DNA of 20,311 nt from positions 1 through 20,311 of the IMG/VR virus record IMGVR_UViG_3300009285_000787; one strand, given 5' to 3'. The notes under the pieces are model-generated. The model was not told the origin of the DNA. It did no database searches and saw nothing but the letters and a program-made list of their open reading frames with translations. Position 1 is the stretch's first letter. Each line of letters opens with the position of its first letter. The DNA is from a virus. Positions 1,252-20,311 of the stretch are shown here, in pieces. The position numbers and the translations under genes are program-made.

Positions 1252-1668
1252 ATGGTCGTAAGACCGATCCGCGAAGCGCCAGATCCAGTGAAGTTGAAGG
1301 GCATGGACGGAGACGCCGATCTTGTGTTCGTCGGCGTGTCGAACTACTCGTTGCAGCACTACCTGACCGAACGCTACGACCTGACCTCTACCGAGTTGCT
1401 CGTGGGGCTCGTGCTCACCACGTTCCGCAACCAACGCGACGCGAAGTGCTGCCCGTCGAAACCAACGCTAGATCGCAAGTGCCACCTTGGGCACACGGCG
1501 GTAACGACGGCTCTCGGGGGGCTGATCAGGAAGGGCGTGCTGGTGAGGAAGGACGGAACGGGCGTGCGTAACAAGGTATCACGGTACTACTTCCCCTACG
1601 ACGAGGCTGCGGCCCGGCAGCTCTACGAGCGGAACAGGATGGCGATCGATGCGTTCGACGACGACTAG
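1252..1668 (+). CDS. Winged helix-turn-helix DNA-binding protein
   Basis: This encodes 138 residues. Residues about 44-117 look like the winged-helix domain used in phage replication/regulatory proteins (helix_turn_helix-36 or DnaD-N type). The segment runs LTSTELLVGLVL, a loop with CCPSKPTL, a recognition-helix-like stretch HTAVTTALGGLIRKG, then a wing ending SRYYFPYD. This whole segment aligns by eye with residues 21-94 of the gene at 9591, so the two are probably paralogues. The acidic C-terminus ends DDD. ATG 1252 is chosen for the SD GGGAGG 5 nt upstream; an upstream in-frame start near 1123 lies inside the promoter. It may bind the dyad array that starts 6 nt after its stop. Confidence 0.8.
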   Translation: MVVRPIREAPDPVKLKGMDGDADLVFVGVSNYSLQHYLTERYDLTSTELLVGLVLTTFRNQRDAKCCPSKPTLDRKCHLGHTAVTTALGGLIRKGVLVRKDGTGVRNKVSRYYFPYDEAAARQLYERNRMAIDAFDDD

Positions 1669-1673
1669 AATAG

Positions 1674-1755
1674 AACCGCTTGGCGGAAACAAGGAACCGC
1701 GACGCGGTTTTAGTTTGAGCCGCGTCGCGGTTCTAGTATGGGCCGCCAAGCGGTT
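1674..1755. repeat. Array of four CCGC-N3-GCGG dyads, nested inverted repeats
   Basis: Four 15-bp near-palindromes of the form AACCGC-N3-GCGGTT occupy 1674-1688, 1695-1709, 1718-1732 and 1741-1755, with 21, 23 and 23 bp between starts. Site 2 is a perfect palindrome. Sites 1 and 4 (1674-1686/1743-1755), and sites 2 and 3 (1695-1707/1720-1732), are also perfect 13-bp inverted copies of each other, so the whole block is symmetric about 1714. Likely roles are an operator array, a partition or origin site, or (with TTTTAGTTT after site 2) a terminator. The gap 1756-1808 shows nothing else. Confidence 0.85.
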
Positions 1756-1808
1756 GCTGAACAGGGTACCGATCCAACAGACAATCCCAACCGACAAATG
1801 GGAAGCAG

Positions 1809-1839
1809 CTTCGCCTGGGGCGAAGTTGCATTGCTTCGC
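1809..1839 (+). promoter_or_regulatory. Two mutually exclusive hairpins
   Basis: CTTCGCC (1809-1815) pairs with GGCGAAG (1819-1825). The second arm can instead pair as GCGAAG (1820-1825) with CTTCGC (1834-1839). Such alternatives are typical of attenuators, but there is no U-tract and no leader peptide I can defend. It sits in the 237-bp gap between the winged-helix gene and the 1906 gene, for which I find no convincing promoter. Confidence 0.35.
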
Positions 1840-1856
1840 TCACGCCACGGATCGCA
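1836..1856 (+). repeat. 21-bp direct repeat, copy A
   Basis: This 21-bp stretch, beginning TCGCTCACGCC and ending GATCGCA, is found identically at 10137-10157. Both copies lie downstream of a winged-helix gene (168 and 15 nt after the stop codon). It may mark the edge of a duplicated cassette, a recombination junction or a regulator site. Confidence 0.75.
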
Positions 1857-1905
1857 GCGTCGCGTTGACGCTCTCGACCTGTGGCTTTCGTAGGAGGTGC
1901 GACCG

Positions 1906-7209: not shown

Positions 7210-7665
7210 ATGGCAGAGCGAATGGAGCAGGCCCGACTCGACGCGATCCTGGCTCAGCACGCGGAGTGGGTCGCCAGCGGTGGCGAGCGGGGCACCCGCG
7301 CCGACCTGACGTCCGCCAACCTGAGGTCCGCCGACCTGACGTCCGCCAACCTGAGGTCCGCCGACCTGACGTCCGCCAACCTGACGTCCGCCAACCTGAG
7401 GTCCGCCGACCTGACGTCCGCCAACCTGTACGGCGCCAACGTCAACGGAGTGCTGGGCCGGCGCTTGATGTCGGTCGGCCCCGTTGGCTCGCGCAACGGC
7501 CTGCTCATCTACGACGCTGACGCCGATATGGTCTACGCCGGTTGCTGGCGCTCCAGCCTGGCCGACCTGCTCGAACGCGTCGAGGCCGTCTACCCCGAGG
7601 GCAGCCAGCACCGCGCCGGATACCTGCTGGCGATCGAGTGGCTGATACGGGCGCTGGCGCTGTAA
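7210..7665 (+). CDS. Pentapeptide-repeat protein
   Basis: This encodes 151 residues. Residues 31-80 form ten tandem A(D/N)LxS pentapeptides (ADLTS, ANLRS, ...), ending ANLYG and ANVNG. Pentapeptides of the A(D/N)LXX type fold into a right-handed quadrilateral beta-helix; some family members mimic DNA and bind gyrase. Ten repeats make only about two and a half coils. The N-terminal helix (LDAILAQHAEWVASGG) and the C-terminal domain (RNGLLIYDADADMVYAGCW) resemble other phage pentapeptide proteins. GGGAGGGG precedes the ATG. The target is unknown; gyrase or topoisomerase binding is only a possibility. Confidence 0.9.
   Translation: MAERMEQARLDAILAQHAEWVASGGERGTRADLTSANLRSADLTSANLRSADLTSANLTSANLRSADLTSANLYGANVNGVLGRRLMSVGPVGSRNGLLIYDADADMVYAGCWRSSLADLLERVEAVYPEGSQHRAGYLLAIEWLIRALAL
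7300..7449 (+). repeat. 15/30-bp tandem repeats encoding pentapeptides
   Basis: In-frame 15-bp units alternate CTGACGTCCGCCAAC and CTGAGGTCCGCCGAC, making 30-bp higher-order repeats that are nearly identical at DNA level. The near identity suggests recent expansion or contraction by recombination rather than slow divergence. Confidence 0.85.
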
Positions 7666-9139: not shown

Positions 9140-9211
9140 GTGCGCGAAGCTCTCGTGGGAGAGGCGCCCGCTTCTGAGCGGGAGGGCTGCGTTCGACTCG
9201 CAGCGCGCACG
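9140..9211 (+). tRNA. tRNA-like element with 6-nt anticodon loop (Gln-CUG-like)
   Basis: A perfect 7-bp acceptor stem GTGCGCG/CGCGCAC (9140-9146/9204-9210) encloses a D-arm, an anticodon arm and a T-arm CTGCG-TTCGACT-CGCAG with canonical T-loop. The anticodon arm CCCGC/GCGGG (9167-9171/9178-9182) leaves only six loop bases, TTCTGA, or eight if the last pair opens. CTG would be the anticodon in the six-base form. The usual U8 and A14 are A and T, and the 10-25 pair is G-G. It may be a decaying or specialised tRNA. No CCA is encoded. It ends 3 nt before the tRNA-Ala. Confidence 0.55.
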
Positions 9212-9214
9212 CCT

Positions 9215-9287
9215 GGGGATGTAGCTCAGTTGGGAGAGCGCGGGATCTGCAATCCCGAGGCCGCCGGTTCGATCCCGGTCATCTCCA
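9215..9287 (+). tRNA. tRNA-Ala(UGC)
   Basis: This is a full cloverleaf: acceptor GGGGATG/CATCTCC, D-arm GCTC-AGTTGGGA-GAGC, anticodon arm CGGGA-TCTGCAA-TCCCG (anticodon TGC at 9248-9250), variable loop AGGCC and T-arm GCCGG-TTCGATC-CCGGT. The third acceptor pair is G-U, the alanyl-tRNA synthetase identity element, and the discriminator base is A. The following CCG means CCA is not encoded and must be added. It decodes GCA and related Ala codons, probably supplementing the host. Confidence 0.95.
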
Positions 9288-9293
9288 CCGCAC

Positions 9294-9590: not shown

Positions 9591-10121
9591 ATGGTCATCG
9601 CACTTGACAACACGAAGCTGCGCAGGCACTTGTTCGAATCGTTCCCACAACTATCACAGAACGCATTGTCGGTAGCGCTTGCTGTTGCTGAAAACCGGGA
9701 TGAAGCAACCGGCGGTTGTCATCCGACTAAAAATTTATTGGTCGCGATGTCTAGAGGATCAAAGACACAGTTTCGACGGGCCATCAATGAACTTTCTCGC
9801 TTAGAAATAATGCACCGAGTCAATGGGACAGGGGCGTCTGGCGTCACTTCATGTTACTGGTTTCCATTTGACCAAGAAAAACCATCAATCAATGTGAAAT
9901 CTTCTACTCCAAATACTCGTGCCAAGTCGAAGCGATCTACAAGCATTTGTGACCGGTGCGGAACGCGCCCAGATGTAATCCATCGTCACCATGTGCTTCC
10001 CGTTGCGAGCGGGGTAGAGGACAGTCGTGAGTGCAACATCGTTCGCATGTGCGTCGATTGCCACAGGTGGGTGCATGGCGCCGAGAATGTTGATGGGCTA
10101 TATGTAGCTTGCCGGGTCTAG
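9591..10121 (+). CDS. Winged-helix/HNH endonuclease fusion
   Basis: This encodes 176 residues. Residues 21-94 (LSQNALSVALAVAEN to CYWFPFD) are a winged-helix domain aligning with residues 44-117 of the 1252 protein. After a basic linker comes an HNH-like domain: C120-x2-C123, HRHH at 131-134, N149, then C154-x2-C157-H158 and H162. These fit a zinc-supported beta-beta-alpha-metal nuclease with H133/H134 and N149. Its codons are clearly AT-richer than the surroundings (for example AAA AAT TTA TTG around 9729), a sign of recent transfer. A likely role is a free-standing homing-type endonuclease, with DNA targeting by the winged helix. TAGGAGG lies 8 nt before the ATG. Confidence 0.85.
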   Translation: MVIALDNTKLRRHLFESFPQLSQNALSVALAVAENRDEATGGCHPTKNLLVAMSRGSKTQFRRAINELSRLEIMHRVNGTGASGVTSCYWFPFDQEKPSINVKSSTPNTRAKSKRSTSICDRCGTRPDVIHRHHVLPVASGVEDSRECNIVRMCVDCHRWVHGAENVDGLYVACRV

Positions 10122-14320: not shown

Positions 14321-16537
14321 GTGGCAGAGCAACTCGAAGCGACGATCATCGACGTGTTTCAGCCCAAGAAGGGCGAGGCATGGGGAGTGGCCACCGTGAC
14401 CACCGGCCACGTGTCCGACTCCACCTCGCGGCAGTCGACGAAGGACACGATCTCGGTGGTCGGCTCGGTCGGCATGGCGAAGATCGGCGAGGTGCTGGTG
14501 GCCACCGGGCGCTGGGTCGACCACCCCACCTACGGCCGGCAGTTCAAAGCCGAGACGGTGGCGTTCAAAGCCCCCACCAAGCGCGAGCCCCTCATCCGCT
14601 TCTTGGCGTCCACAGTGTCGGGCATCGGCGAGACGCGGGCTGCAATGATCGTCGACCACTTCGGAACCGACGCGATGCGCATCCTCGACGCACGCCCCGA
14701 CCTGCTGCGAATGGTTCCCGGGCTGCCGCGCTCGCTGGTGCCCAAGATGGTCGAGGCGTATCAGGCCGCGCGCTGCACGAAGCACCGCGACATCCTGCTG
14801 TACCTGCAGACCGCAGGGGTGGGGCCCAAACTGGCCGGGCGTATCGTGGCGAAGTACGGCGACAATGCCGAAGAGGTGATCGCCGAGGACCCCTACGTCT
14901 TGATGACGGAGTTCTCTGGGGTGGGGTTTTTGACCTGCGACAAGATCGCAGACCAACTCAGCATCCCCGCCAACGACCGGCGCCGGCTGCGTGCCGCGCT
15001 CGTGTACCACATCACTGAGGACTGCGAAGGCCAAGGGCACACCCACCTACCGACCGAGGGGCTGGTCGACCGCCTGGGCGACAAGATGCGCAAGACGCGC
15101 GACGTGGAGACCGTGGCGATCCGCACGTACCTCAAGGAGCTGCTCGACGAGGGGACGATCGTTTTCGAGGACGGCCGGCTGTACCTGAGCAGGACGCACC
15201 AGACGGAGATCACGGTTGCCACGCGCTTGGTGGAGATCGCTGAGTCGCGACGGGCGGTGGTGCCAGGCGTGGCCAACGAAGCGATCGCGTGGGCAGAGGC
15301 TGAGGACGGGATCACGTTGACCGATGAGCAGCGGGCCGCGGTACTCGCTGCCACTGCTGGCGGGCTGCTTTCGGTCACGGGAGGTCCTGGTACGGGCAAA
15401 TCGTGCGTGACTCGTGCCATCGTCCGCGCGCTAGAGAACCTGCGGATCTCGTATGCGCTGTGTGCACCCACGGGCAAGGCGGCGCAGCGGTCCACCGAGG
15501 CCACGGGTCGTCACGCCACGACGATCCACCGGCTGCTGGGGTTCAAGGGCGACGGCTTCGAGTACAACGCGGGGAACCAACTGAGCGCGGGCGTGGTCAT
15601 CATCGACGAAACCTCGATGGTCGACCTGACGCTGGCTCGCGCGCTCCTTGTGGCCATGCGGCCAGGCGCTGCGCTGGTGCTGGTTGGCGACGTCGACCAG
15701 CTCCCGAGCGTGATGCCTGGCTCAGTCCTCGACGACGTGATCAACTCGGGGCTCGCCACCGTCGTCAGGCTCACGACGATCCACCGGCAGGGCAAGGGCT
15801 CTGCGATCTCGCTGGCGGCTGCCACGGTGAACGCAGGCGGTCGACCTGATGGGCCCAGCCCCTACAGCGAGCCCGGTGCGGAGTTCGCGGTGGTCGCGCT
15901 GAAGGAGAGCAACGCGATCGCGGACGCCACGGAGGACCTGGTGTTACGGGCTCGCGAGGTGTGGGGCTTCGACCCCGTGCGCGAGGTGCAGGTCATCACG
16001 CCGATGAAGAAGTACGCGTCGGGGGTCATCGAACTGAACCTCCGGCTGCAGCAGGCGCTGAACCCCGTGCAGCTCGGCGTCGGTGAGGTGCGCGCCCACG
16101 GCGATGCCTTCCGGCCTGGCGACAAGGTGATGCAGACCAAGAACGACTACCAGCGGATGGTTTTCAACGGCATGGTGGGCTACGTGGCCTCGGTGGACCC
16201 GCAATCGAGCCGGCTCACGGTGGCGTTCGCGGACGGTGACGACGAGGTTGTGGCGTACGACCGGGAGGACCTGGCGCACCTGGTGCTCGCGTACGCTTGT
16301 ACAGTGCATAAACTACAAGGGTCAGAATCGCCCGTTATCGTGTTTCCTCTTGATCCATCACACTGGTTCATGCAATTTAGGGCATTGGTATACACCGGCA
16401 TCACGCGGGCTCGCAAGCGGTGCGTGCTGGTGGGCGACGTGGCGAAGGCGCAGTCGAGGTACCGTGCCAAGAAGCGCGACGAGCGAGTCACGTGGCTGGC
16501 GTCGAGGATGCGCGAGATCGCCAAGACGAGGGGGTGA
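14321..16537 (+). CDS. recD2: RecD2-like superfamily 1 DNA helicase
   Basis: This encodes 738 residues starting at GTG 14321 (GGGAGGGG upstream), close to the usual RecD2 length. An N-terminal OB-like domain (1-90) is followed by helix-hairpin-helix repeats (FLASTVSGIGETRA, LQTAGVGPKLAGRIVAKYG, EFSGVGFLTCDKIA). Walker A GGPGTGKS is at 354-361 and motif II DETSMVD at about 429-435. LVGDVDQLPSVMPGSVL and the C-terminal VHKLQGSE (662-669) with YTGITRARK are further hallmarks of 5'-to-3' RecD helicases. It likely acts at replication forks or recombination intermediates. A 95-bp patch around 16298-16392 has AT-rich codons unlike the rest. Confidence 0.95.
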   Translation: MAEQLEATIIDVFQPKKGEAWGVATVTTGHVSDSTSRQSTKDTISVVGSVGMAKIGEVLVATGRWVDHPTYGRQFKAETVAFKAPTKREPLIRFLASTVSGIGETRAAMIVDHFGTDAMRILDARPDLLRMVPGLPRSLVPKMVEAYQAARCTKHRDILLYLQTAGVGPKLAGRIVAKYGDNAEEVIAEDPYVLMTEFSGVGFLTCDKIADQLSIPANDRRRLRAALVYHITEDCEGQGHTHLPTEGLVDRLGDKMRKTRDVETVAIRTYLKELLDEGTIVFEDGRLYLSRTHQTEITVATRLVEIAESRRAVVPGVANEAIAWAEAEDGITLTDEQRAAVLAATAGGLLSVTGGPGTGKSCVTRAIVRALENLRISYALCAPTGKAAQRSTEATGRHATTIHRLLGFKGDGFEYNAGNQLSAGVVIIDETSMVDLTLARALLVAMRPGAALVLVGDVDQLPSVMPGSVLDDVINSGLATVVRLTTIHRQGKGSAISLAAATVNAGGRPDGPSPYSEPGAEFAVVALKESNAIADATEDLVLRAREVWGFDPVREVQVITPMKKYASGVIELNLRLQQALNPVQLGVGEVRAHGDAFRPGDKVMQTKNDYQRMVFNGMVGYVASVDPQSSRLTVAFADGDDEVVAYDREDLAHLVLAYACTVHKLQGSESPVIVFPLDPSHWFMQFRALVYTGITRARKRCVLVGDVAKAQSRYRAKKRDERVTWLASRMREIAKTRG

Positions 16538-16539
16538 CT

Positions 16540-17622
16540 GTGGCAGAGCCGTTGAAGTTTCCCGCGCCGTACTTTGGAGGCAAGTCCAAGATCGCACCGC
16601 AAGTATGGGAGCGCATCGGCGCGGGCGTGCCCAACCTCGTCGAGCCCTTCGTGGGGTCGGGCGCCTTCCTGCTGGCGCGACCGGGCGGAAAGCCTCGGGG
16701 CTGCGTCGAGACAGTGAACGACGCGAGTGGCTACCTGAGCAACGTGTTTCGCGCGTTGCAGGCAGACCCCGACGCGGTGGCACGGCACGCAGACCGCCCG
16801 GTGAACGAGCGCGACCTTGAGGCGATCCATTGGTGGCTGCTGACGGAAGGGGCTGCGCGGCTCGTGCCGTTGGCGGGTGACTTTCGCGCGTTCGATGCGG
16901 AGGTGGCGGGGCTATGGATCGCCGGCGCATGTTGCTGGATCGGCGGGGGCTGGTGCTCAGGCGAAGGCCCGTGGCAGTGGACGGGCAGCGAGTGGGCGAA
17001 GCGCGACAGCGCGAGCCAACTCCCGCACGTAGGCGACCCGGGGATGGGCATCAACCGCCAACTCCCGCACGTAGGCGACCCGGGGATGGGCATCAACCGC
17101 CAACTCCCGCACGTAGGCAACCCGGGGATGGGCATCAACCGCCAACTCCCGCACGTAGGCGACCCGGGGATGGGTGGCGAACGAACCGAGTTCATCCGCG
17201 CCTGGTTCACGCGCCTGTCTGCACGCCTGCGCGACGTGCGCGTTGCCTGCGGCGACTGGTCGCGCGTCATGGGCGACTCGGTGACGTTCCGCCACGGCTT
17301 GACCGGCGTGTTCCTTGATCCGCCCTACCACGGCGCGGGCGTCGAGTGGCAGCACGACGGATACGCGCCGGACGCCAGCGGTGCAGACGTGTGGGCAGAC
17401 GTAACCGCGTGGTGTCGCGAGAACGGCAACAACCCGCTGCTCAGGATCGCGCTCTGCGGCTACGAGGGCAGCCCCGGCGTGCCGGAGGGATGGGAAGCGA
17501 TGGCCTGGAAGAGTCATGGTGGCTATGGATCGCAGGGAGACGGGGCCGGGCGTGCCAACGCGATGCGCGAAGTGGTCTGGCTGTCGCCAGCATGTCTCGA
17601 ACCGCAAGGAAGGCTCCTGTGA
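16540..17622 (+). CDS. D12-class N6-adenine DNA methyltransferase
   Basis: This encodes 360 residues. The start PAPYFGGK (8-15), SAM-binding motif PFVGSGAF (36-43), VNDASGYLSNVFRAL and catalytic DPPY (260-263) are diagnostic of Dam-like D12 methyltransferases. In place of a normal segment between 160 and 212 is a tandem QLPHVGDPGMGINR repeat. GTG 16540 is chosen for GAGGGGG spacing; GTG 16534, overlapping the helicase stop, is an alternative. It probably methylates phage DNA at adenines to avoid host restriction. The ATGA-type overlap with the next gene indicates coupling. Confidence 0.92.
   Translation: MAEPLKFPAPYFGGKSKIAPQVWERIGAGVPNLVEPFVGSGAFLLARPGGKPRGCVETVNDASGYLSNVFRALQADPDAVARHADRPVNERDLEAIHWWLLTEGAARLVPLAGDFRAFDAEVAGLWIAGACCWIGGGWCSGEGPWQWTGSEWAKRDSASQLPHVGDPGMGINRQLPHVGDPGMGINRQLPHVGNPGMGINRQLPHVGDPGMGGERTEFIRAWFTRLSARLRDVRVACGDWSRVMGDSVTFRHGLTGVFLDPPYHGAGVEWQHDGYAPDASGADVWADVTAWCRENGNNPLLRIALCGYEGSPGVPEGWEAMAWKSHGGYGSQGDGAGRANAMREVVWLSPACLEPQGRLL
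17017..17174 (+). repeat. 42-bp in-frame tandem repeat in the methyltransferase
   Basis: Three complete 42-bp units (17017-17058, 17059-17100, 17101-17142) and a 32-bp partial one (17143-17174) encode QLPHVGDPGMGINR. Only one base differs (GGCAAC in unit 3). Near identity at DNA level indicates recent expansion. Confidence 0.93.
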
Positions 17623-18203: not shown

Positions 18204-18431
18204 ATGAAGGTGCGTGCATCGCTGACCGAGAAATTCTTTTGCTGGGATTGCGGGTTTGAGCACCGCGTCGTTGTGGAGATCCATGCGTCGGAAGAAACCG
18301 ATGCACCTCCGATCAACAAGAACACGTTCTGCGCCGAGTGCCTTTTGCATTACGCGAAGGAGGCAGCGCGGTACGAAGAGGCGCTGGTGGCCGCCGATTC
18401 GACCATGGGCTGGATCGGTGACGAAGAATGA
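18204..18431 (+). CDS. Small zinc-finger protein
   Basis: This encodes 75 residues. C13-x2-C16 (FFCWDCGFEH) and C43-x2-C46 (NTFCAECLLHY) form two knuckles, consistent with one zinc site. The C-terminus is a helix and ends GWIGDEE. ATG 18204 follows GGGGAGG by 6-7 nt; the longer upstream reading includes the leader hairpin and is rejected. It overlaps the replication-initiator gene (ATGA at 18428), suggesting coupled expression and perhaps interaction. Confidence 0.75.
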   Translation: MKVRASLTEKFFCWDCGFEHRVVVEIHASEETDAPPINKNTFCAECLLHYAKEAARYEEALVAADSTMGWIGDEE

Positions 18432-19492
18432 GAATCCGCAGCGTGAAGCCTGAGTTCTGGAGTGACCAAAAGGTCGGCGTGTTGGATGCTGAGACGCGGT
18501 TGGCGTTCATCTGGACGTGGGGCGCCGCTGACGACTGGGGATGCTTGAAGCTCTCGCCCGGCGCGCTTCGGTCGGGCGCGTTCGAGTGCCACGATATGAC
18601 GCTGGCGCGTGGTCGCGAAATCATCGACACGCTGACCGCTGCACGACGAGTGATCGGCTACGTCGTCGACGGCGAGATGTACGCGTTCATCCCGTCGTGG
18701 TTCCGACACCAGCGGCCCAACAACCCAGCGGCACCGCTGCACCCCGTTCCGCCGTTCGATTTCTGCGACGAGGCGCGCTGGTTTCTGCGTGAGTACGCCG
18801 ACGCCCTTCGCTCCGAATGCTCTGGACGTGAGCGCAAGAACACCGCGGCGATGTCTCGGGCGTACCAGTCACTTCCGAGCGAATGTCTGGACACGAAGGC
18901 ACGCGCGGCGCGAGAGGATCAAGAGACTCTCAAGACACTGTCTGGAGAGTGTCAGGACACTTCTGCGCCAGGAGCAGGGGAGCAGGGGAGCAGGGGAGCA
19001 GGGGAGCAGGGGAGCAGCGACGGAGCAGCAGCAACACATATATTGCTCGCTGGTGAGACGCCACAGACCGACCAGCCCGACGCTCCCTCTCCACATCGTG
19101 CGTGGTCGCGTGGCTCCATGACGAGAGAGCAGGCGCGGAAGGTGTTCGACCTGTGGCTCAAAACCTTCGACAAGACCGATCGCAACGTGTTCGAGGGGCC
19201 GCGCGAAAATGCAATCCGGGCACGTGCGAACGAGGGTGCCAAGTTCATGGAGGCGAAGCTCGCCATCATCGGGTGCTACTCTGAGGGCAAGCGCGACACG
19301 TTCTCCGATGGCAGGAAGCGCATCGACCACGAGAGCGCGATCAAGTTCACGCTGATCTTCAAGTCCGACGAGAGGATGCGCGGGTTCATCGACACCGCCA
19401 GGAAATCGCTCGACAAGCGCGGCATGAAGGTTTCCGACGACGGCGAGTACATCGTCAACAAGAAGACCGGCGAACGCGTCGAGGGGTGGTGA
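18428..19492 (+). CDS. Phage replication initiator/replisome organiser-like protein
   Basis: This encodes 354 residues. The start MRIRSVKPEFWSD is typical of phage replication proteins with an N-terminal winged-helix domain (about 1-100: LAFIWTWGAADDWGCLKLS, a helix with DTLTAARRVIGYVVDGEMY, FIPSWFRHQRPNNP). A disordered linker (about 130-225) carries an 8-bp DNA repeat giving GAGEQGSR. The C-terminal domain begins near TREQARKVFDLWL and ends in a basic, conserved-looking stretch (ESAIKFTLIFKSDERM). It probably binds the origin and recruits the primase or helicase encoded 3 nt downstream. It is similar in role to DnaD or gp-O type proteins, but the homology was judged by pattern. Confidence 0.82.
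   Translation: MRIRSVKPEFWSDQKVGVLDAETRLAFIWTWGAADDWGCLKLSPGALRSGAFECHDMTLARGREIIDTLTAARRVIGYVVDGEMYAFIPSWFRHQRPNNPAAPLHPVPPFDFCDEARWFLREYADALRSECSGRERKNTAAMSRAYQSLPSECLDTKARAAREDQETLKTLSGECQDTSAPGAGEQGSRGAGEQGSSDGAAATHILLAGETPQTDQPDAPSPHRAWSRGSMTREQARKVFDLWLKTFDKTDRNVFEGPRENAIRARANEGAKFMEAKLAIIGCYSEGKRDTFSDGRKRIDHESAIKFTLIFKSDERMRGFIDTARKSLDKRGMKVSDDGEYIVNKKTGERVEGW
18973..19012 (+). repeat. Five 8-bp tandem repeats in coding sequence
   Basis: AGCAGGGG is repeated exactly five times and followed by a partial copy. Eight is not a multiple of three, so gain or loss of one unit shifts the frame. Loss of one unit would stop at TGA 19054-19056 and gain of one unit at about 19119-19121. Confidence 0.92.
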
Positions 19493-19495
19493 CCG

Positions 19496-20311
19496 ATGCA
19501 CTTCGACGCTGAGCACGACGTTCGCGCGCTGGTCACCGAGAAGGGTTGGGAGGTGCTGTTCGAGGCGGGCCGCGAACTGTGGCTGAAGGTGTGCCCGCTA
19601 TGCGGTGGCGAGAGCAGGGACGTCAGCGACAAGGCGTGCTCGTTCAACCTCGACAGCGGGGCGTTCCGCTGCTTCCGCGGTGGCTGTGCAGGTGGCGGCG
19701 GCAAGGGCCAGGGGCTCAACATCTGGACGCTCAGGAAGGCGCTGGGCGACGTGCTCGACATCGGCAGCTACACGCCCGGGAAGGTCGAGAAGGCGAAGGC
19801 CGCTGAGTACGTCCAGCGCTTGACCACGGCCAAGGCGAAGCTCGCCAATGCCGATGGCCCGGAGGCGTGGCACCGGCTGCTACTGGAGACGCCGGCAGCG
19901 CTGGATTGGCTGGCGACGTGTGGCGGACCGCTGAAGGGGCGCGGGCTCACGAGGGAGACGGTTGAGCGCTTCCACCTCGGGCTGCACAAGGATGGCCCGG
20001 ACCAGAAGGATCGGCGGTGGCTCACGATCCCGTACTACCACGACGGCGAGCCCGCGCTGGTGAAGGAGCGGTCGATCGGCGGCGCCAAGGACTTCCGCCG
20101 CGTGCCGGCGGGGGCCCCGTCGCTGATGTTCAACGGCGACGCGATCGCGGGTGGGGGCAGCCACGTGTACCTGTGCGAGGCCGAGATCGACGCGATCAGC
20201 CTGGAGCAGCTTGGGTTCTCGCCGGCGGTGGCAGCGAGCGCCGGCGCAGGTGCGTTCCCCGACGAGTGGCGGGAGCAGCTCGAGGCCGTCGAGAACATCG
20301 TGATCGTGTAC
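19496..20311 (+). CDS. DnaG/gp4-like primase (partial, cut by window end)
   Basis: This encodes 272 residues with no stop before the window edge. A zinc-binding domain CPLC (C33, C36) with RCFRGGC (C59, C64) is followed by a linker and then the TOPRIM core YLCEAEIDAISL (E228, E230, D232). This is the same order as DnaG and T7 gp4/Twinkle-type primases. The missing C-terminus may carry a helicase domain. ATG 19496 follows the initiator stop by 3 nt with GAGGGG upstream. It synthesises RNA primers for phage DNA replication. Confidence 0.9.
   Translation, partial: MHFDAEHDVRALVTEKGWEVLFEAGRELWLKVCPLCGGESRDVSDKACSFNLDSGAFRCFRGGCAGGGGKGQGLNIWTLRKALGDVLDIGSYTPGKVEKAKAAEYVQRLTTAKAKLANADGPEAWHRLLLETPAALDWLATCGGPLKGRGLTRETVERFHLGLHKDGPDQKDRRWLTIPYYHDGEPALVKERSIGGAKDFRRVPAGAPSLMFNGDAIAGGGSHVYLCEAEIDAISLEQLGFSPAVAASAGAGAFPDEWREQLEAVENIVIVY

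What the first reader, a model, noticed from the sequence alone, without database searches (positions are those of the whole stretch)
1674..1755. Symmetric array of four CCGC-N3-GCGG dyads right after a DNA-binding protein gene
Four 15-bp palindromic sites at 21-23 bp spacing (about two helical turns) are also arranged as two nested, coaxial 13-bp inverted repeats. Regular phasing suggests cooperative protein binding on one DNA face. The block begins 6 nt after the winged-helix stop. It could be that protein's operator, a replication origin or partition site, or a cruciform/terminator.
Basis: seen in the sequence. Interest (0 to 1): 0.8.

Follow-up and report, generated by a model that had tools for sequence, protein, structure and literature searches.

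The report
Phage replication origin beside shortened initiator
Four evenly spaced DNA palindromes just behind a small DNA-binding-protein gene look like the replication start site of a bacterial virus, built like the classic one of phage lambda but with the initiator protein cut down to its DNA-binding half and the start site moved outside the gene.

Summary
Four CCGC-N3-GCGG dyads (centres 1681, 1702, 1725, 1748; spacing 21, 23, 23) lie in a non-coding gap that starts right after the 1252-1668 stop, with nested perfect inverted repeats of 13 and 14 bp. No simulation of 2000 gave four such dyads within about 90 bp.

The 138-aa product is a winged-helix domain (Pfam HTH_36; PHROG "replication initiation O-like"). 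Collection scans show that dyads of this kind with A/T-flanked arms, 22-23 bp apart, are close to diagnostic of lambda-O-like initiator genes. In one exhaustive scan 24 of 25 such loci have the winged-helix domain 64-389 bp upstream on the coding strand. The 25th (L216) again has a free-standing, O-like 122-aa protein with the array starting about 6 nt after its stop. Lambda's own ori has four imperfect-dyad iterons spaced 20, 24, 23 bp.

Best explanation: a lambda-type iteron origin whose initiator kept only the DNA-binding domain, with the iterons outside the gene; helicase loading would need another protein (candidate 18428-19492). Binding and origin activity are inferred, not shown. Rivals: operator, decoy or second origin, hairpin element. 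New variant of a known kind.

The parts
1252..1668 (+). Gene for a 138-aa free-standing winged-helix protein (lambda-O-like DNA-binding domain only)
   Evidence: Pfam HTH_36 E 2.3e-6 above cut-off; PHROG 391/270 replication initiation O-like E 9e-7/4.6e-6; AF2 model H-H-H-H-E-E winged helix, mean pLDDT 78.5; viral fold matches include proteins named lambda GpO N-terminal and replication protein O
1669..1905 (.). Non-coding gap that holds the origin-like block
   Evidence: No codon-position GC signal (0.5-0.67 in all phases against 0.82 at third positions in the flanking genes)
1674..1755 (.). Iteron-like array of four dyads, also two nested inverted repeats
1676..1686 (.). Dyad 1 CCGC-TTG-GCGG
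1697..1707 (.). Dyad 2 CCGC-GAC-GCGG (15-bp perfect palindrome AACCGCGACGCGGTT at 1695-1709)
1720..1730 (.). Dyad 3 CCGC-GTC-GCGG
1743..1753 (.). Dyad 4 CCGC-CAA-GCGG
1756..1805 (+). A-rich, T-poor tract on the coding strand, with two near-copies of CCAACMGACAA; candidate strand-opening region
   Evidence: 60-mer after the array has 20 A and 7-8 T, 53-55% GC; about 9% of window 60-mers are as skewed, so weak taken alone
1809..1825 (.). Stem-loop CTTCGCC-TGG-GGCGAAG 55 bp after the last dyad; comparable hairpins follow many homologous arrays
   Evidence: P 0.02 here; 8-10-bp stems in L033, L240, L125, L055, L122, L105, L072
18428..19492 (+). Second replication-initiation-type gene (phrog_2149), next to a primase/helicase gene that begins near 19496; candidate helicase loader, or a second origin

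Best explanation
The block is a lambda-type phage replication origin. The 138-aa winged-helix protein binds, most likely as a dimer per dyad, to the four CCGC-N3-GCGG iterons and forms an O-some-like nucleoprotein complex. This strains the A-rich tract and stem-loop that follow and lets the replicative helicase be loaded. In ordinary relatives the initiator is one 290-430-aa protein with the iterons inside its gene, in the linker between the DNA-binding and helicase-loading parts. Here the gene ends just before the iterons, so the DNA-binding part stands alone, the origin is non-coding, and helicase loading must come from another protein (candidate 18428-19492, beside the primase/helicase). 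Shown here: the array, its rarity, the O-like fold of the neighbour, the near-exclusive association of such arrays with O-like genes, and the lambda-like geometry. Inferred: binding, unwinding, helicase loading, and that replication starts here.
For: (1) The neighbour is O-like by Pfam, PHROGs and predicted fold. (2) In an exhaustive scan of IMG/VR for two TCCGC-N3-GCGGA dyads 20-25 bp apart, 24 of 25 loci with 22-23 bp spacing have the winged-helix domain 64-389 bp upstream, always on the coding-strand 5' side; only 1 of 6 with other spacings does (Fisher P 2e-4). The domains fall into about 7 clusters at 50% identity. Across collections, arrays with two or more complementary flanking bases: 23 of 33 near a winged-helix gene; core-only dyads: 4 of 172. 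(3) PHROGs independently calls the array-bearing genes 'replication initiation (O-like)' for L033, L015, L030, L055, L125, L215 and, more distantly, L036; L002 and L105 weakly. (4) The 25th locus, L216, also has a free-standing 122-aa O-like protein (phrog_9773, E 1e-15) with a dyad array starting about 6 nt after its stop and then an AT-rich tract: a second case of the same layout. (5) Lambda control: annotated ori iterons at 39034, 39054, 39078, 39101, spacing 20/24/23, span 85 bp; here 21/23/23, span 82 bp. Lambda iterons are 19-bp imperfect inverted repeats bound by O dimers (PMC7466680). (6) Spacers between the dyads are AT-rich (GC 0.30, 0.25, 0.42) and a hairpin follows as in many homologues.
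Against: No binding or replication data. The protein lacks the helicase-loading half that all full-length relatives keep, so it cannot act exactly like lambda O. The phage carries another initiator-type gene (18428) with its own 8-bp tandem repeats and TGTC-WG-GACA dyads, which could be the real origin. The flanking A-rich tract is only mildly AT-rich (55% GC). GC skew of the 70.8-kb contig shows no inflection here. The winged-helix profile was built partly from the loci it then scored, although PHROGs supports most of them independently.
Confidence: 0.74

Rival explanations
1. Operator / autoregulatory site: the winged-helix protein is a transcription regulator of the downstream early genes (or of its own gene), and the four dyads are cooperative operators.
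For: Free-standing winged-helix proteins are commonly regulators; the closest solved structures by fold are MarR-type regulators; the array lies between two co-directional genes.
Against: No promoter-like site is found between array and next gene; the only one in 1000-2500 is at 1123-1151, upstream of gene 1252, and no dyad of this type lies there. In relatives the arrays lie inside initiator coding sequence, not at promoters.
Confidence: 0.12
2. Decoy or second origin: the phage's working origin is in the 18428 initiator gene; the 1252 module is a second origin (for example for plasmid-like maintenance) or a truncated initiator plus decoy iterons that interferes with competing O-type phages.
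For: Gene 18428 is a separate replication-initiation family member beside the primase/helicase, with GGGGAGCA x6 tandem repeats and TGTC-WG-GACA dyads inside; like repeats sit in initiator genes of Gordonia phage Bantam and Streptomyces phage Alderaan. A paper on arrest of lambda proliferation by ectopic ori copies exists (PMC4488673, title and start of abstract only).
Against: No test of either origin; a helicase loader for a split initiator is expected somewhere, and 18428 could be just that.
Confidence: 0.17
3. Structural RNA or DNA element: a transcription terminator or cruciform made of the nested inverted repeats.
For: The strand folds to -63.8 kcal/mol, z -8; one terminator-like match on the - strand.
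Against: No T-run follows the hairpin on the + strand, where the neighbouring genes lie; no Rfam family. In relatives the dyads are conserved but the nesting is not: the central N3 occurs in either orientation.
Confidence: 0.05
4. Partition (centromere-like) site bound by the winged-helix protein.
For: Clustered palindromes next to a small winged-helix gene resemble some plasmid partition loci; TubR is among the weak fold matches.
Against: No ParA (PF13614) or ParB (PF02195) relative in the 70.8-kb contig; homologous arrays lie in replication initiator genes.
Confidence: 0.03

Closest known systems
Phage lambda ori and O protein (ori-lambda)
   Same: Four dyad-symmetric iterons at about 22-bp mean spacing over 82 against 85 bp, directly 3' of the winged-helix coding part, A-rich tract after the last iteron
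   Different: Iteron sequence differs (CCGC-N3-GCGG against ATCCCTC-N5-GAGGGAT); array is outside the gene; no C-terminal helicase-loading domain in the protein; flank much less AT-rich
HTH_36 / PHROG 270, 391, 1032 replication initiators carrying GTCCGC-N3-GCGGAC or TACCGC-N3-GCGGTA arrays in the gene (L002, L033, L015, L030, L055, L125 ...)
   Same: Same core dyad, same 22-23-bp spacing, same position behind the winged-helix domain, hairpin downstream in many
   Different: They are 290-430 aa with the array in frame; the window protein is 138 aa and the array non-coding
L216 (IMGVR_UViG_3300020109_002546)
   Same: Free-standing O-like winged-helix protein (122 aa) and dyad array starting about 6 nt after its stop, followed by an AT-rich tract
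   Different: Protein is from another O-like PHROG (9773); TCCGC-TTA/TAA-GCGGA dyads
O-like genes of named phages (Pseudomonas phi2, LESphi3, D14B; Arthrobacter Renna12; Sphingopyxis VSN-002)
   Same: Iterons at 17- or 22-bp spacing in the same gene position
   Different: Other iteron sequences, no CCGC-N3-GCGG dyad arrays

Membership tests
Lambda-type (O-like) iteron origin | Initiator with O-like N-terminal winged-helix domain | tested here: met
   PHROG 391/270, Pfam HTH_36, predicted fold
Lambda-type (O-like) iteron origin | Several iterons, each an inverted repeat, at 20-24 bp spacing | tested here: met
   Four dyads, 21/23/23 against 20/24/23 in lambda
Lambda-type (O-like) iteron origin | Iterons lie inside the initiator gene | tested here: not met
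   Array starts 6 nt after the stop, in non-coding DNA; relative position to the domain is the same
Lambda-type (O-like) iteron origin | C-terminal helicase-loader-binding part in the initiator | tested here: not met
   138 aa, matches end at residue about 123; relatives extend 290-430 aa
Lambda-type (O-like) iteron origin | AT-rich unwinding region beside the iterons | tested here: inconclusive
   A-rich, T-poor 60-mer at 53-55% GC in a phage of about 67% GC; AT-rich spacers
Lambda-type (O-like) iteron origin | Initiator binds the iterons; replication starts there | not testable with these tools
   Needs gel shift, footprint and origin mapping
Partition site (parS / tubC type) | Cognate ParA/ParB or TubZ motor gene nearby | tested here: not met
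   No PF13614 or PF02195 match in the 70.8-kb contig; TubZ not searched
Intrinsic terminator | G+C-rich stem followed by a T-run in the direction of transcription | tested here: not met
   None on the + strand in 1000-2500

The most novel reading that the evidence does not exclude
A class of phages, seen twice here independently (this phage and L216), has split the lambda-O initiator. A free-standing winged-helix DNA binder marks a non-coding iteron origin placed directly after its stop codon, and helicase loading is delegated to a separate protein; alternatively the truncated binder plus iterons works as an interference module against O-type phages.
Probability: 0.5. Interest if true: 0.65.

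Novelty: new variant of a known kind. Interest (0 to 1): 0.5.

Why it matters
Origins of most uncultured and GC-rich phages are unmapped. This work gives a simple, searchable signature: [A/T]-flanked CCGC-N3-GCGG dyads at 22-23 bp behind an O-like winged-helix domain. It predicts origins in many unrelated phages and prophages. It also suggests that the lambda initiator can be taken apart, with origin recognition separated from helicase loading, which can be tested with a 138-aa protein and an 82-bp DNA fragment.

Tried and rejected
GC skew as origin evidence: monotonic over the 70.8-kb contig, uninformative. Rfam: nothing at the array. Close relatives of the 138-aa protein: none in IMG/VR besides the same virus, and no significant match in named phages. 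PDB fold search: only generic MarR-type winged helices, E 6e-3 at best. Exact-flank pattern ACCGC-N3-GCGGT: 9 of 12 hits are pairs 21 bp apart in one group of related contigs, in what reads as coding sequence, without a winged helix; rejected as coincidence. The exact nesting of the inverted repeats was considered as the functional feature and set aside, because relatives keep the dyads but not the nesting.

Full report
WHAT IS THERE. The window is a 20,311-base virus record, identical over this region to part of a 70,837-base contig, IMGVR_UViG_3300009031_000062. They also form two perfect nested inverted repeats: 1674-1686/1743-1755 (13 bp) and 1694-1707/1720-1733 (14 bp). Site 2 is a perfect 15-bp palindrome, site 3 has one mismatch, and sites 1 and 4 are palindromic over the 11-bp core only. 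In 2000 first-order Markov simulations of the window, three dyads within about 90 bp arose once and four never.

SETTING. The preceding gene (1252-1668) encodes 138 aa: Pfam HTH_36 (E 2.3e-6) and PHROG 391/270 'replication initiation O-like' (E 9e-7, 4.6e-6). The AF2 model is a winged helix (mean pLDDT 78.5). Matches among predicted viral structures include a 'Bacteriophage lambda, GpO, N-terminal' protein and 'replication protein O' of phage Min27. PDB matches are generic MarR-type winged helices. The stop is at 1666-1668. The gap 1669-1905 shows no codon-position signal, so the array is non-coding. After it comes an A-rich, T-poor tract (1756-1805) and a stem-loop at 1809-1825.

RELATED LOCI. 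A pattern scan of IMG/VR for three dyads gave 37 loci. Some are protein repeats, but the non-repeat arrays mostly sit inside genes for winged-helix initiators, behind the domain. Arms with two or more complementary flanking bases separate the classes: 23 of 33 such arrays lie near a winged-helix gene, against 4 of 172 core-only arrays. An exhaustive scan for TCCGC-N3-GCGGA pairs gave 31 loci. Of the 25 with 22-23 bp spacing, 24 have the winged-helix domain 64-389 bp upstream on the coding strand; of 6 with other spacings only 1 does (Fisher P 2e-4). The domains form about 7 clusters at 50% identity, so this is not one virus counted many times. The profile used was built from part of these loci, but PHROGs independently names six of ten tested array genes as replication initiators with strong scores, two weakly and one not at all (L032); the tenth, L036, from a more distant initiator family, also matches. 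Full-length relatives continue for 290-430 aa with the array in frame.

A SECOND FREE-STANDING CASE. The only exception in that scan, L216, proved to have the window's layout: a 122-aa protein matching phrog_9773 'replication initiation O-like' over its N-terminal domain only (E 1.2e-15), stop codon, about 6 nt later the first of several dyads about 22 bp apart, then an AT-rich tract and the next gene. Its protein is not closely related to the window's (hhalign E 0.05), so the layout recurs in a different O-like lineage.

LAMBDA CONTROL. In lambda the four annotated ori iterons start at 39034, 39054, 39078 and 39101 (spacing 20, 24, 23), span 85 bp, and are followed by an A-rich tract. [quoted passage not shown] Named phages with O-like genes have other iterons at 17- or 22-bp spacing in the same place. 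Geometry is therefore conserved while iteron sequence varies by subfamily.

MECHANISM. Most likely the 1252 protein binds the dyads cooperatively and marks a replication origin. Because it lacks the helicase-loading half, another protein must do that part. The natural candidate is the 354-aa product of 18428-19492 (phrog_2149 replication initiation), directly before a primase/helicase gene. That gene also carries six GGGGAGCA tandem repeats and TGTC-WG-GACA dyads, and similar 7-8-bp tandem repeats lie in initiator genes of Gordonia phage Bantam and Streptomyces phage Alderaan. A second or alternative origin there cannot be excluded.

ALTERNATIVES. Operator: no promoter-like site between array and next gene, and homologous arrays lie in coding sequence. 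Partition: no ParA or ParB in the long contig. Terminator or cruciform: strong fold but no T-run on the coding strand and no conservation of the nesting. GC skew gives no information.

VERDICT. It works like a lambda-type origin, but is not filed as a strict member, because two defining features (iterons inside the gene; initiator with a C-terminal loader part) were tested and not met. It is a new variant of a known kind. Origin activity is inferred.

Noticed in passing
18428-19492: Second replication-initiation-type gene carries 8-bp tandem repeats GGGGAGCA x6 (18971-19019) and TGTC-WG-GACA dyads (18884-18893, 18950-18959); similar 7-8-bp repeats (GGGGAACA, GGGAACA) sit in initiator genes of Gordonia phage Bantam (L287) and Streptomyces phage Alderaan (L286), perhaps a shared strand-opening element.
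   Followed up: partly
downstream of arrays in L033, L240, L105, L072, L055, L122, L125, L032: CCGC arrays in O-like genes are often followed by AACCGTCA-type short repeats on the coding strand and/or by a 7-10-bp stem-loop; looks like a conserved further part of these origins.
   Followed up: partly
9591-10121: 176-aa protein with a weak HTH_36-like N-terminal part and an HNH endonuclease-like part, in the most AT-rich stretch of the window (57-60% GC).
   Followed up: no
7299-7440: 15-bp tandem repeat in a pentapeptide-repeat-like gene (RSADLTSANL); the longer contig has 165 bp more repeat here than the window: copy-number variation.
   Followed up: partly
17015-17174: 42-bp tandem repeat (3.8 copies) inside the 16420-17622 reading frame.
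   Followed up: no
1140-1250: Leader of gene 1252 with a long imperfect stem (GTGGTTGCG...CGCAACCAC) after a promoter-like site; fold z-score only -1.6.
   Followed up: partly
9140-9213 and 9215-9289: tRNA-Ala (TGC) with a second tRNA-like gene of unclear anticodon directly before it.
   Followed up: no
L036:2805-2881: CCGCAATGCGG array at 22-bp spacing inside another initiator family (phrog_9474), with long simple-repeat coding stretches downstream.
   Followed up: no
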